Positions 38,724 through 48,236 of a DNA stretch of 64,000 nt are shown piece after piece. Where the stretch lies: contig AP026073.1 in NCBI GenBank assembly GCA_024349765.1, positions 4,836,001 to 4,900,000 on the forward strand, read 5' to 3'. Numbering within the stretch: position 1 is the stretch's first letter; each line of letters starts with the position of its first letter. Position numbers and translations under genes: made by a program. The notes beneath the pieces were generated by a model. That model did not search any database and was not told where the DNA came from. It was given only the letters and a program-made list of their open reading frames with translations. This DNA is from Streptomyces nigrescens (lineage in GTDB: Bacteria > Actinomycetota > Actinomycetes > Streptomycetales > Streptomycetaceae).

Positions 38724-38936
38724 TCAGCCCTGCAGGGCCTGCCAGAACTCGTCGAAGGACATGGTGCCGTTCCGGTCGGTGTCCTTGGCCTTGATGACGG
38801 CCTCGGCGACCGGGCCGGTGACGAACGGGTCGCCCATCTCCGCCATCGCGTGCTTGAACTCGTCCGGCGTGACCTGGCCGTCGCCGTCCGCGTCGTACCG
38901 GTCGAACGTCGCCCTGGCCTCGTTGATGTCTGCCAT
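38724..38936 (-). CDS. EF-hand calcium-binding protein (CabB-like)
   Basis: A 70-residue acidic protein with two EF-hand loops, [12 protein letters not shown] and [12 protein letters not shown], both with the 1/3/5/12 acidic ligands. The start [20 protein letters not shown] closely resembles small Streptomyces calcium-binding proteins such as CabB, as I recall them. I set the start at ATG 38934-38936 with GGGGG upstream; a longer frame to 39008 adds an unlikely leader. It probably buffers or senses Ca2+ in the cytoplasm. It is monocistronic between two convergent/parallel neighbours. Confidence 0.92.
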
Positions 38937-39018
38937 GAGAGGTGCCCCCTTCGTGGTGCTGCGCAGTGCTGCGCGGTGGTGTTGCCTGGTGATCTGACCT
39001 GCGTACATTAGCGGACCG

Positions 39019-43029: not shown

Positions 43030-43353
43030 CTACCAGGTGACGGGCCGGGCGTGGCAGCCATAGATCGACATGTCGGTACGGAACGGGATCTCCTCGACCG
43101 GAACCGCGGGCCGCATCGCCGGGAAACGGCGCAGCAACCGGCCGAGGACCACCTGGAGTTCGACCCGGGCCAGGGCCTGCCCGAGGCACCGGTGGATGCC
43201 GTACCCGAAGGCGACGTGGTGCCGGGAATCGGGGCGGGCGATGTCGAGCCGGTCGGCGCTCAGCCCGATCATGTTGGCGGTGGTCTCGTGCCCGGCGATC
43301 AGCAGCAGGGCGGCGAAGGCGGCCACCCGGTCGTGGTAGCCGGGCAGTTCACG
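43030..43353 (-). pseudogene. Cytochrome P450 relic (N-terminus and middle lost)
   Basis: An open stretch after a TGA at 43354-43356 encodes the P450 I-helix (YHDRVAAFAALLLIAGHETTAN) and then, after only about 15 residues, the haem-binding region (HHVAFGYGIHRCLGQALAR) and a normal C-terminus. About 230 N-terminal residues and some 80-100 residues between I-helix and haem loop, including the ExxR helix, are missing. The fragment cannot be a working P450. It keeps its position directly upstream of the ferredoxin and ferredoxin reductase genes, so an intact P450-Fd-FdR operon once existed here. Confidence 0.9.
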
Positions 43354-46118: not shown

Positions 46119-48236
46119 TCAGGCGACCTCGATGCCGTACTCCTGCACCAGAGCGGTGAGGCCGCCGGGGTAGCCCTTGCCGCCGATGACGAAGTCCCAG
46201 TCGCCGCCGGCCCGTTGCCGGAAGGAACCCAGGACCAGTGCAGTCTCGCCGCGCCGCCCGTCGGAGACCACCAGCTGCCCCTGCTCCTCCCCCGCGGCGT
46301 CCAGCAGCCGGATCCGGGCGTCGGTGAAGCCGGCGAGGTCGGCGTCGGGGTTGGCCTGGGGGTCGACGGCGGCGACCAGGACCAGCCGGTCGGCGTCCGG
46401 TGGCAGCCCCTCGAAGTGCACCCGCACCGCGGCCCGGTCGGGGGCGGTGCCGGGCAGCATCCGTACCGAACCGTCCGGTGTGCACGGGTTGTTGTAGAAG
46501 ACGAAGTGGTCGTCGCTGAGCACGGTGGTCCCCTTGCAGACCAGGGCGCAGACGTCGAGGGCCACGTCCCCGGACCAGGTCATGCCGAGGACGTTGTGGT
46601 CCGGTGTTCCGCCGGAGGAGGCGGTGGGGGCGGGCGCGCCGTCGGGGTCGGTGTCGGTGCCGGGGGCGGGCGTGCCGAGGCGGCCGCGGAGACCGTAGCG
46701 GCCGAGCAGGTCGACGAGTTCGGGGCCGGCGATCAGGCTGAGCGGTTTGCCGTTGGCGAAGGTGTGCGCGCCGGGGCCGAAGCGGGAGGTGGTCACCAGC
46801 ACGCCCTTGTTGGCGCCTTCGGACTGGACGGTGCCGTAGAGGTCGCGGACCGCGGTGGGCGGGACGGTGTTGCGGTAGCGCTTGACCTGCACGACGATCT
46901 TGCCGCCGCGGATCGGGTCGGGGTCCAGCGCGTCCACGTCCACCCCGCCGTCGCCGGACCGCTGGGTGGTGACGGCCTGCATGCCCATCGCGCGGAACAG
47001 TTCCGCGATCAGGTTCTCGAAGGCGATCGGGTCCATCTCGTAGAGGTCCGGCTCGGTCTCGCCGCCGTGCGAGACGACCGTGCCCGCACCGCCGACGTCG
47101 TCCGGCAGCCGTCCGGGCCGTACCGCCGTGCGCTGGTCCGGCCGGGCGGCGAGCTGCCCGCGCAGGCCGTCGGTCAGGCACTCCACGGCGCTGACCCGGT
47201 CGAGGTGGAGGGCGTCGAAGGCGCCGCGCGGGGCCATGACGGTGGCGAGGTACACCTGCGCGGGGCGGCCGGTCGCCGGGTCGACGTCGTCCACGAAGCC
47301 GTTGAGCGCCACCGAGTCCAGCGCGCCGTAGGTGTCGGCGGCGAAGAGGTCCCGCAGGACCAGCAGCATGCTCTGGGCCAGGACGTCGCGGTAGAGCGCC
47401 CGGCGCTGGGCGGCCGGCCGGGCGGTCTCCTTCTCCTGGTCGGCACCGGCCTGGTACCGGACGGCCTTGGTCTCGGGGACGACGGCGTAGCCGGGCAGTT
47501 CCCAGTCCAGGACGAGCTGGCGGGCGGTGGGTTCGTAGGCGGCGGTGACCCGGCGGGGGAACCCCTCCGGCCAGGCGGTGGAGGCGTAGAGCGCGGCGGA
47601 GAAGTACTCGACGGCGGCCTCGGCGTCGCCGTTGCGCAGGCCGGTCAGCAGTTCCTCGATGCCGGCGTTGTGCTGCCGGATCCCGTCCAGCGCACCGGCG
47701 GCCCACTGGTCGTACTGCCGGCGGTAGGCGGCGAGTTGGTTCTGCCGCTGGTGTTCGGCGGACTGCGCGGCGTACCAGTCCTGTTCGTACCGGGCGCGGG
47801 CCTCCTCCTGGGCGCGGTCGCGGCGGGCCGCGCCCAGGTGCCAGCCGCCGGGGGGCGCCTGATAGCGGGCGGGGTCGGGCATCGGTACGGGGGTGGCGAG
47901 GGCGCCCGGCGCGAACTCCTCGATGCGCTCGGGGCGCAGCAGCGCGGCGGCGGTGAACGCCGGGGCCCGGCAGCCGTCGGCGAGCAGGCCGGTGAGCGCG
48001 GCGACCCGGGCGTCCAGCTCCTCGGTCCGGCGGCGGGCGTCCGCCTCGCGCTGCTGCCGGTAGGCCGCCTGGCGTTCCCGGTGCAGCCGCGCCATGGCCC
48101 GTTCGGCGTCCCGGGCCTGCCGTTCCTGGTCGCGCTGCGCCTGGGCGTACGCGCGGCGCTGGGCTTCCTCCCGGCGCTGCTGCTGGCGCTGCGCCTCGGC
48201 CCAGACGGCCATTAATCCATGGGAACGGCGGCTCAT
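46119..48236 (-). CDS. Coiled-coil / Mrr-type nuclease / TerD fusion protein
   Basis: A 705-residue multidomain protein. Residues about 8-80 and 140-190 are Gln/Arg/Glu-rich coiled coil. Residues about 200-395 form an unassigned domain (LVLDWELPGYAVVPETKAVRY; VYLATVMAPRGAFDALHLDRV). Residues about 402-515 are an Mrr-like restriction endonuclease with E407 (IAFENLIAELF), D433 (SGDGGVDVDAL) and Q450-x-K452 (IVVQVKRYRN). Residues about 548-705 are a TerD domain (SDDHFVFYNN, ETALVLGSFRQ, GGLTALVQEYGIEVA). In the TerD Ca-site motif, usually DLDAS, the sequence is LDVCAL, so one acidic ligand is Cys. TerD proteins belong to stress and phage/tellurite-linked systems, so a DNA-targeting stress or defence role is plausible. 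No ter cluster or methylase is adjacent. Confidence 0.92.
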   Translation of the reverse strand: MSRRSHGLMAVWAEAQRQQQRREEAQRRAYAQAQRDQERQARDAERAMARLHRERQAAYRQQREADARRRTEELDARVAALTGLLADGCRAPAFTAAALLRPERIEEFAPGALATPVPMPDPARYQAPPGGWHLGAARRDRAQEEARARYEQDWYAAQSAEHQRQNQLAAYRRQYDQWAAGALDGIRQHNAGIEELLTGLRNGDAEAAVEYFSAALYASTAWPEGFPRRVTAAYEPTARQLVLDWELPGYAVVPETKAVRYQAGADQEKETARPAAQRRALYRDVLAQSMLLVLRDLFAADTYGALDSVALNGFVDDVDPATGRPAQVYLATVMAPRGAFDALHLDRVSAVECLTDGLRGQLAARPDQRTAVRPGRLPDDVGGAGTVVSHGGETEPDLYEMDPIAFENLIAELFRAMGMQAVTTQRSGDGGVDVDALDPDPIRGGKIVVQVKRYRNTVPPTAVRDLYGTVQSEGANKGVLVTTSRFGPGAHTFANGKPLSLIAGPELVDLLGRYGLRGRLGTPAPGTDTDPDGAPAPTASSGGTPDHNVLGMTWSGDVALDVCALVCKGTTVLSDDHFVFYNNPCTPDGSVRMLPGTAPDRAAVRVHFEGLPPDADRLVLVAAVDPQANPDADLAGFTDARIRLLDAAGEEQGQLVVSDGRRGETALVLGSFRQRAGGDWDFVIGGKGYPGGLTALVQEYGIEVA

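What the first reader, a model, noticed from the sequence alone, without database searches (positions are those of the whole stretch)
46119..48236. Coiled-coil / Mrr nuclease / TerD fusion as candidate stress or defence protein
One polypeptide combines a long coiled coil, an unassigned 190-residue domain, an Mrr-like nuclease with visible E407, D433 and QxK(452), and a TerD domain whose Ca-site has Cys for Asp. Mrr nucleases cut modified or foreign DNA and TerD domains mark membrane-linked stress complexes. Here both are joined without a methylase or ter operon, so the TerD part may gate the nuclease. TerD-nuclease associations have been proposed from comparative genomics, but I know of no characterised example with this layout.
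Basis: partly seen in the sequence, partly recalled or inferred. Interest (0 to 1): 0.72.

Follow-up and report, generated by a model that had tools for sequence, protein, structure and literature searches.

The report
Nuclease fused to TerD stress domain
A streptomycete gene joins a DNA-cutting domain to a TerD stress-response domain in one protein, and some other actinomycetes carry similar TerD-nuclease pairings of separate origin, which suggests that TerD helps aim or switch on DNA-cutting enzymes that act against invading DNA.

Summary
The reading frame is real: 46119-48236, minus strand, 705 aa, with coiled coil, unassigned ~190-residue domain, Mrr_cat (E 4e-33) and TerD (E 8e-22). The layout holds in 79 of the 80 best related loci; E407, D433, Q450 and K452 are invariant in 80 of 80 aligned rows. 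One detail fails: the TerD Cys stands opposite Ser, not Asp, and the acidic loop of ordinary TerD is missing. Coiled coil, middle domain and Mrr match one known-type unit (PADLOC mREase_IV, E 2e-62) that is common without TerD. (2) The coiled-coil/middle part also occurs as its own gene directly upstream of SNIPE-type nucleases in 7 of 22 actinomycete loci. Presence is patchy (22 of 61 congeneric genomes), neighbours vary, remnants exist. Best reading: a single-gene nuclease against foreign DNA with TerD as aiming or gating module, perhaps at the membrane. Function is inferred; nothing here shows activity, target or TerD ligand.

The parts
46119..48236 (-). Whole gene, 705 aa: coiled coil - middle domain - Mrr_cat - linker - TerD
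   Evidence: full-length homologues
47991..48215 (-). First long helix / coiled coil, residues 8-82
   Evidence: AlphaFold model; conserved N-terminus
47634..47831 (-). Second long helix / coiled coil, residues 136-201
47061..47633 (-). Unassigned middle domain, residues 202-392; shared with TerD-less Mrr proteins and, as part of a separate gene, with some SNIPE-type loci
   Evidence: AlphaFold of residues 200-395 alone pLDDT 90.3, pTM 0.87; no Pfam family; relatives
46704..47042 (-). Mrr_cat PD-(D/E)xK nuclease domain, residues 399-511; E407, D433, Q450-V-K452
   Evidence: invariance; Foldseek matches MspJI and AspBHI
46605..46673 (-). Low-confidence linker, residues 522-544
   Evidence: pLDDT under 50
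46125..46595 (-). TerD domain, residues 548-704; D561 kept, Ala559, acidic loop missing, C563 and C567

Best explanation
It is a single-gene nuclease directed against foreign (phage or plasmid) DNA. The coiled-coil/middle module docks the enzyme on its target, the Mrr domain cuts DNA, and the C-terminal TerD domain, an addition seen in Streptomycetaceae, places the enzyme (for example at the cell membrane or at a Ter-protein complex) or releases it on a stress or infection signal. Shown here: the domains, the intact and conserved catalytic residues, purifying selection on each domain, the TerD-less parent family, a second TerD-Mrr fusion of separate origin, one TerD-SNIPE protein, and the sharing of the coiled-coil/middle module with SNIPE-type loci. 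Inferred: DNA cutting, defence, docking by the middle module, and aiming or gating by TerD.
For: PADLOC mREase_IV over residues 18-512, E 1.7e-62. Nuclease motif 80 of 80; dN/dS Mrr 0.01-0.12, TerD 0.18-0.31 against 7 relatives. Full length in 22 of 61 congeneric genomes. Of 6 fetched congeneric regions with the same flanking ligase (out of 8 other genomes with it) 4 hold the gene and 2 do not; one of the two, L213, keeps two fragments at the site. G013 keeps only the TerD part. Plasmid copies. Commonest neighbour cluster within six called genes in only 15 of 78 loci, so no fixed partner. TerD N-terminal to Mrr: parts of both domains in 7 of 8 genomes of genus g68, complete in 5 (Pfam 3 of 3 scanned). 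TerD N-terminal to DUF4041 + GIY-YIG in L177, TerD E 1.7e-36. The reversed fusions lie outside the clade of fused forms on the Mrr tree (98/99) and in another TerD subfamily (95/91). Coiled-coil/middle gene directly upstream of SNIPE-type nucleases in 7 of 22 loci, same strand, the nearest in-frame start within about 5 bases of its stop. SNIPE is a membrane-bound nuclease that cuts phage DNA during injection (PMC13190303; abstract and sections 9, 10, 29 read).
Against: No activity, target or phage phenotype is known for this protein. The window neighbourhood is not a defence island. Within its own clade the gene is fairly syntenic (ligase found in 7, PGA_cap gene in 8 of 12 loci examined), as for a vertically inherited gene. 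In 5 of 5 reversed TerD-Mrr proteins read, the Gln of QxK is Ser, so those nucleases may be altered or dead. Only one TerD-SNIPE protein was seen: 1 of 22 loci; in 5 genomes of its family the other four matches were to TerD alone, and 0 of 32 plasmid records covered 80% of it; its TerD was not placed on a tree. By a crude hydropathy test only 1 of the 22 SNIPE-type proteins (L194) has a strongly hydrophobic N-terminal stretch, so a membrane place of the actinomycete ones is itself unproven. In two loci (L164, L165) the coiled-coil/middle protein has no Mrr and I noticed no SNIPE-type gene beside it (not searched by profile). A TerD-less relative (L108) falls inside the fused clade, with Kitasatospora on the Mrr tree (98/95), weakly so on the longer one (83/25), so loss in L108 or two gains are both open. 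TerD is promiscuous in actinomycetes (one next to what looks like a VWA domain in L159), so fusions alone prove no shared function.
Confidence: 0.58

Rival explanations
1. Classical type IV enzyme: the middle domain reads a modified base and the Mrr domain cuts modified incoming DNA; TerD only helps stability or assembly.
For: The parent family is labelled methyl-directed in PADLOC. In S. coelicolor an Mrr-like enzyme (Sco4213) restricts m6A DNA in vivo (PMC3874153, Table 1, passages). Foldseek finds the modification-dependent MspJI and AspBHI.
Against: Nuclease similarity does not in itself set modification preference (PMC3874153, passage). No modified-base reader fold came up for the middle domain (inconclusive). 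The same middle module pairs with SNIPE-type nucleases, and SNIPE itself is reported to act by location (PMC13190303, section 10). It leaves the TerD fusions unexplained.
Confidence: 0.22
2. Housekeeping or stress nuclease: TerD senses metal, calcium or oxidative stress and the Mrr domain processes the cell's own damaged DNA.
For: TerD label and 8 other TerD matches in the genome; a neighbour cluster with a RecQ helicase (one member scanned) in 11 of 78 loci, next in order in 10 of them; chromosomal location in the window genome.
Against: Full-length gene lacking in 39 of 61 congeneric genomes, variable neighbours, plasmid copies, missing acidic loop of ordinary TerD.
Confidence: 0.1
3. Inactive nuclease kept as a DNA-binding or scaffolding protein, like the NACHT-associated inactive REase family that also matches.
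For: NA-iREase1 matches residues 406-509, E 1.3e-13; the reversed fusions have SxK instead of QxK (5 of 5 read).
Against: E, D, Q and K invariant in 80 of 80 and present in 17 of 17 TerD-less relatives read by eye; the Mrr domain is the most constrained part; Mrr_cat scores 114 bits, NA-iREase1 51.
Confidence: 0.06
4. Chance or assembly artefact: two neighbouring genes read as one.
For: None found.
Against: Same fused frame in 79 of the best 80 related loci and in a Kitasatospora plasmid.
Confidence: 0.01

Closest known systems
PADLOC mREase_IV PDLC03663 (type IV methyl-directed restriction enzyme model, 544 positions)
   Same: Coiled coil, middle domain and Mrr in the same order over 22-524 of 544 positions; TerD-less members in streptomycetes and other bacteria
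   Different: The TerD-less kind lacks the C-terminal domain; methyl dependence of the window protein is unknown. In one search the model also matched 4 of 14 control genomes, so a match alone is not specific to this layout
SNIPE / PD-Lambda-1 (DUF4041 + GIY-YIG membrane nuclease, PMC13190303)
   Same: 7 of 22 actinomycete SNIPE-type loci carry a separate gene homologous to about residues 1-395 of the window protein directly upstream; one SNIPE-type protein has an N-terminal TerD
   Different: Unrelated nuclease fold; no DUF4041 or GIY-YIG in the window protein; action at the membrane is only a proposal here
ScoA3Mrr (Sco4213) of S. coelicolor
   Same: Mrr-like enzyme of a streptomycete that restricts m6A DNA in vivo (PMC3874153, passages; Mrr_cat per PMC1934918, passages)
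   Different: Whether it shares the coiled-coil/middle module could not be tested; the passages read mention no TerD
TerD family (3ibz, 2kxt) and ter operons
   Same: TerD family and fold match; [quoted passage not shown]
   Different: No ter gene beside it; acidic loop missing; fused behind a nuclease
CoCoNuT type IV systems (PMC11090510)
   Same: Coiled coils with nucleases and, in some types, Ter-related (TerY-P) genes (passages)
   Different: No McrB-type GTPase or TerY-P among the 9 neighbours scanned; TerD, not TerY
MspJI / AspBHI
   Same: Mrr-cat type nuclease, best Foldseek hits besides TerD-like chains
   Different: MspJI and its kin read the base with an N-terminal SRA-like domain (PMC3874153, passages), which was not recognised here

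Membership tests
Mrr_cat PD-(D/E)xK nucleases | Pfam Mrr_cat above cut-off | tested here: met
   114 bits against cut-off 21
Mrr_cat PD-(D/E)xK nucleases | E ... D ... QxK catalytic residues | tested here: met
   E407, D433, Q450, K452 in 80 of 80 rows
Mrr_cat PD-(D/E)xK nucleases | DNA cleavage | not testable with these tools
   needs protein
Type IV (modification-dependent) restriction enzymes | Matches a curated type IV model along its length | tested here: met
   PDLC03663, residues 18-512 to 22-524/544, E 1.7e-62
Type IV (modification-dependent) restriction enzymes | Known modified-base reader domain | tested here: inconclusive
Type IV (modification-dependent) restriction enzymes | Cuts modified DNA only | not testable with these tools
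   needs an assay
TerD family | Pfam TerD above cut-off, and fold | tested here: met
   78 bits against 25.3; Foldseek 3ibz E 1.7e-12
TerD family, calcium type | Acidic GDNxTGEGxGDDE loop of ordinary TerD | tested here: not met
   Absent in the 9 Streptomyces/Actinacidiphila rows and the Kitasatospora row aligned. That this loop binds calcium is recalled
Ter operon systems | terC, telA, TerY or other ter genes alongside | tested here: not met
   none among the 9 neighbouring genes scanned
SNIPE / PD-Lambda-1 | DUF4041 and GIY-YIG nuclease | tested here: not met
   No such family in the window protein
SNIPE / PD-Lambda-1 | Membrane location | not testable with these tools
   needs microscopy or fractionation
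ScoA3Mrr (Sco4213) subfamily | Shared coiled-coil/middle module | not tested
CoCoNuT systems | McrB-type GTPase in the operon | tested here: not met
   none among the 9 neighbours scanned

The most novel reading that the evidence does not exclude
TerD is a portable aiming or trigger module that actinomycetes have attached apparently three separate times to nucleases of two unrelated folds (Mrr and SNIPE-type GIY-YIG), and the window protein is a PD-(D/E)xK counterpart of SNIPE: it waits at the membrane or at a Ter complex and cuts DNA as it enters, telling self from non-self by place rather than by methylation. The coiled-coil/middle module is the common docking part of both nuclease kinds.
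Probability: 0.24. Interest if true: 0.85.

Novelty: new variant of a known kind. Interest (0 to 1): 0.62.

Why it matters
What TerD domains do in phage inhibition is still open: published proposals are that they sense a nucleotide-like signal in Ter systems whose other parts act at the membrane (PMC7824862 and PMC7159879, passages). A single protein in which TerD is joined to a conserved, apparently intact nuclease, with other fusions as controls, makes the question directly testable: remove TerD, move it, or change its pocket, and measure phage restriction and location. The shared coiled-coil/middle module also links a poorly studied type IV family to SNIPE; a term search of the SNIPE paper's main text for Mrr, TerD, upstream gene, two-gene and coiled found nothing (its supplements were not read).

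Tried and rejected
Rejected: chance frame or misassembly; loss of the nuclease motif; a fixed operon partner (commonest cluster in 15 of 78 loci; L041 and L063 were dropped because my gene caller missed the focal gene); a compositional island in the window (one search shows no G+C step, no tRNA). Phage records hold no full-length relative (6 records with partial TerD or Mrr matches).

Literature: searches. No paper in the library holds both DUF4041 and TerD. Seven hold both TerD and Mrr as whole words; of these I saw the TerD passages of two (PMC3710099, PMC7159879), which describe no such fusion, and only the listing of the other five. The most likely earlier source, Anantharaman 2012 (10.1039/c2mb25239b, PMC4104200), is not held, so a TerD-REase fusion may already be listed there; I recall that it treats TerD together with DNA-processing enzymes.

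Full report

2. Conservation. A scan of genome contigs found 118 relatives and kept the best 80, all in Streptomyces, Streptacidiphilus and Actinacidiphila, matched over practically the whole query. Of the 80, 79 have one intact frame; L083 is broken in the coiled coil and was dropped. In own + 79 rows E407, D433, Q450 and K452 are invariant, as are D561, C563 and C567. A Kitasatospora plasmid protein has the same architecture at about 50% identity, with Ser at the C563 place. dN/dS against seven close relatives is 0.13-0.29 (coiled coil), 0.17-0.32 (middle), 0.01-0.12 (Mrr) and 0.18-0.31 (TerD).

3. A correction. In the alignment with ordinary TerD domains, C563 stands opposite Ser of FDLDASA; the first Asp of that motif is Ala559 here (Ala in 72 of 80), and the loop GDNxTGEGxGDDE is missing. 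If that loop is the calcium site (recalled, not tested), calcium gating is unlikely.

4. The parent family. PADLOC's mREase_IV model PDLC03663 covers residues 18-512 with E 1.7e-62. So coiled coil, 'unassigned' domain and Mrr are one established unit, and TerD is the addition. With profile A1 in 148 actinomycete genomes, the full fusion occurs in 4, all of the own genus; 14 loci in 12 genomes of other families carry the unit without TerD (two of the 14 have a stop within the matched stretch). Among the 30 plasmid records listed, matches in Methylobacterium, Agrobacterium, Xanthomonas, Pseudochrobactrum and Pseudonocardia end at residues 504-508. In 61 genomes of the own genus the fusion is full length in 22; two genomes carry a TerD-less member (G021, and G054 beside its fusion), and G013 has only the TerD part, with no further match upstream. 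In 17 of 17 TerD-less relatives read by eye E, D and QxK are present.

5. Distribution and context. Neighbours vary: within six called genes the commonest cluster is in 15 of 78 loci; a cluster with a RecQ helicase (one member scanned) is in 11. In the window the scanned neighbours are an alpha/beta hydrolase, an AMP-binding ligase, a fucosidase, a lipase maturation factor, a PGA_cap protein, a P450 fragment, a pyridine-nucleotide oxidoreductase, a UvrA-like ATPase and an EF-hand protein. Among 12 related loci (L009-L020) the ligase is found in 7 and the PGA_cap gene in 8, so the gene is fairly syntenic within its clade. The ligase occurs in 9 of 199 congeneric genomes, own included; of 6 of the other 8 regions fetched, 4 have the fusion and 2 do not; one of those two, L213, keeps fragments of residues 322-359 and 669-705 at the site, a deletion remnant. 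Three plasmids hold a match over at least 80% of the query; the one in Streptomyces sp. NBC_01724, typed mobilizable, lies among AIPR, PIN, AbiV and transposase genes. Phage records hold no full-length relative.

6. TerD joined to nucleases elsewhere. In genus g68 of family f20 a protein of about 450-500 aa has TerD first, a proline-rich linker, then Mrr_cat (Pfam in 3 of 3 scanned). Of 35 genomes of that family, 7 of the 8 g68 genomes have parts of both domains (complete in 5; in pieces in G242 and G243) and no other genus has both. On the Mrr tree the fused forms plus TerD-less L108 form a clade at 98/99 and the reversed ones another at 100/99. On the TerD tree the two sets lie in different subfamilies, split at 95/91. 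So these two fusions arose separately. Against: Gln of QxK is Ser in 5 of 5 reversed proteins read. A third architecture: L177 (G137) has TerD (E 1.7e-36) in front of DUF4041 and GIY-YIG, the SNIPE / PD-Lambda-1 kind. It is 1 of 22 SNIPE-type loci; in 5 genomes of its family the other matches were to TerD alone, and none of 32 plasmid records covered 80% of it. Its TerD was not placed on a tree.

7. The coiled-coil/middle module is shared. In L166 and L168 it is a gene of its own (409 and 415 aa, no Mrr) followed at once by a DUF4041 + GIY-YIG gene; in L167 only the start of such a gene follows, recognised by eye. PADLOC calls the second gene PD-Lambda-1 (best E 1.3e-101 and 2.1e-96) and the first mREase_IV (6.4e-22 and 1.9e-41). 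From the other side: PDLC03976 gave 22 loci in 296 actinomycete genomes, and 7 of these 22 have the coiled-coil/middle gene directly upstream on the same strand, the nearest in-frame start of the nuclease within about 5 bases of its stop (L193 is the same locus as L166). Nine partners form one clade at 100/100 inside the family. In L164 and L165 the module has no Mrr and I noticed no such nuclease beside it. SNIPE sits in the membrane and cuts phage DNA during injection; most of its homologues are thought to be aimed at membranes by diverse N-terminal parts (PMC13190303, abstract and sections 9, 10, 29). By a crude hydropathy test only L194 of the 22 proteins here has a strongly hydrophobic N-terminal stretch, so the actinomycete ones need another way to the membrane, if they go there.

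8. Mechanism. Best reading: the coiled-coil/middle module docks on a target connected with invading DNA, the Mrr domain cuts, and TerD places or releases the enzyme. Shown: architecture, conservation, module sharing, two fusions of separate origin and a third architecture. Inferred: everything functional. The narrower proposal, cutting at entry by place rather than by methylation, rests on the SNIPE link and on the published view that parts of Ter systems act at the membrane and that TerD may sense a signal (PMC7824862, PMC7159879, passages). The main rival is an ordinary type IV enzyme; Sco4213 shows that an Mrr-like enzyme of Streptomyces can restrict m6A DNA in vivo (PMC3874153, passages).

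9. Novelty. New variant of a known kind. A TerD-dependent anti-phage system with a McrBC-like restriction system, as separate genes, is in print (PMC3710099, passage). No described TerD-Mrr or TerD-SNIPE protein came up in the searches named under Tried and rejected, but Anantharaman 2012, the most likely place, could not be read.

Noticed in passing
L166 4866-7409, L168 5416-8036, L178, L183, L186, L188, L189, L190: Two-gene unit of a coiled-coil/middle protein and a SNIPE-type (DUF4041 + GIY-YIG) nuclease in actinomycetes; several of these nucleases start with a PPGWPxPPxGW repeat.
   Followed up: partly
L177 1459-3423: TerD fused in front of a SNIPE-type nuclease; one case in 22 loci.
   Followed up: partly
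L145 6894-8288, L146, L147 and relatives L157, L158: Reversed TerD-Mrr fusion of one genus, with SxK in place of QxK; in L157 and L158 a gene that looks like glycyl-tRNA synthetase (recognised by eye) lies close by.
   Followed up: partly
L180, L185, L192, L195: SNIPE-type proteins whose N-terminus has a W(Y/F)xD...RYWDG..WT-like motif (looks like DUF2510, recalled, not tested).
   Followed up: no
L213 6329-6547: Remnant of the fusion gene (pieces of residues 322-359 and 669-705) at the syntenic site of a congeneric genome, which looks like loss by internal deletion.
   Followed up: yes
L098 8487-8963: Only the TerD part of the fusion is found, 73% identical, without coiled coil or nuclease.
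   Followed up: yes
L039 8001-11018: Orthologue with about 300 extra C-terminal residues in frame and no Pfam match in them; could be a lost stop or a real extension.
   Followed up: no
L168 3236-4381: DUF262 protein matching NsnA and PD-T4-2_A near the SNIPE-type pair on a Kocuria plasmid, beside a HEPN gene.
   Followed up: no
L169 4821-6140: Pseudonocardia plasmid where the match spans two annotated genes, a hypothetical protein and a restriction endonuclease: split gene or frameshift.
   Followed up: no
window 38724-39008: Small EF-hand (calcium-binding) protein gene, 94 aa, about 7 kb from the fusion; nothing links the two.
   Followed up: no
window 43030-43326: Frame with only the C-terminal part of a cytochrome P450 in Pfam (98 aa), probably a gene remnant or a mis-called frame.
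   Followed up: no
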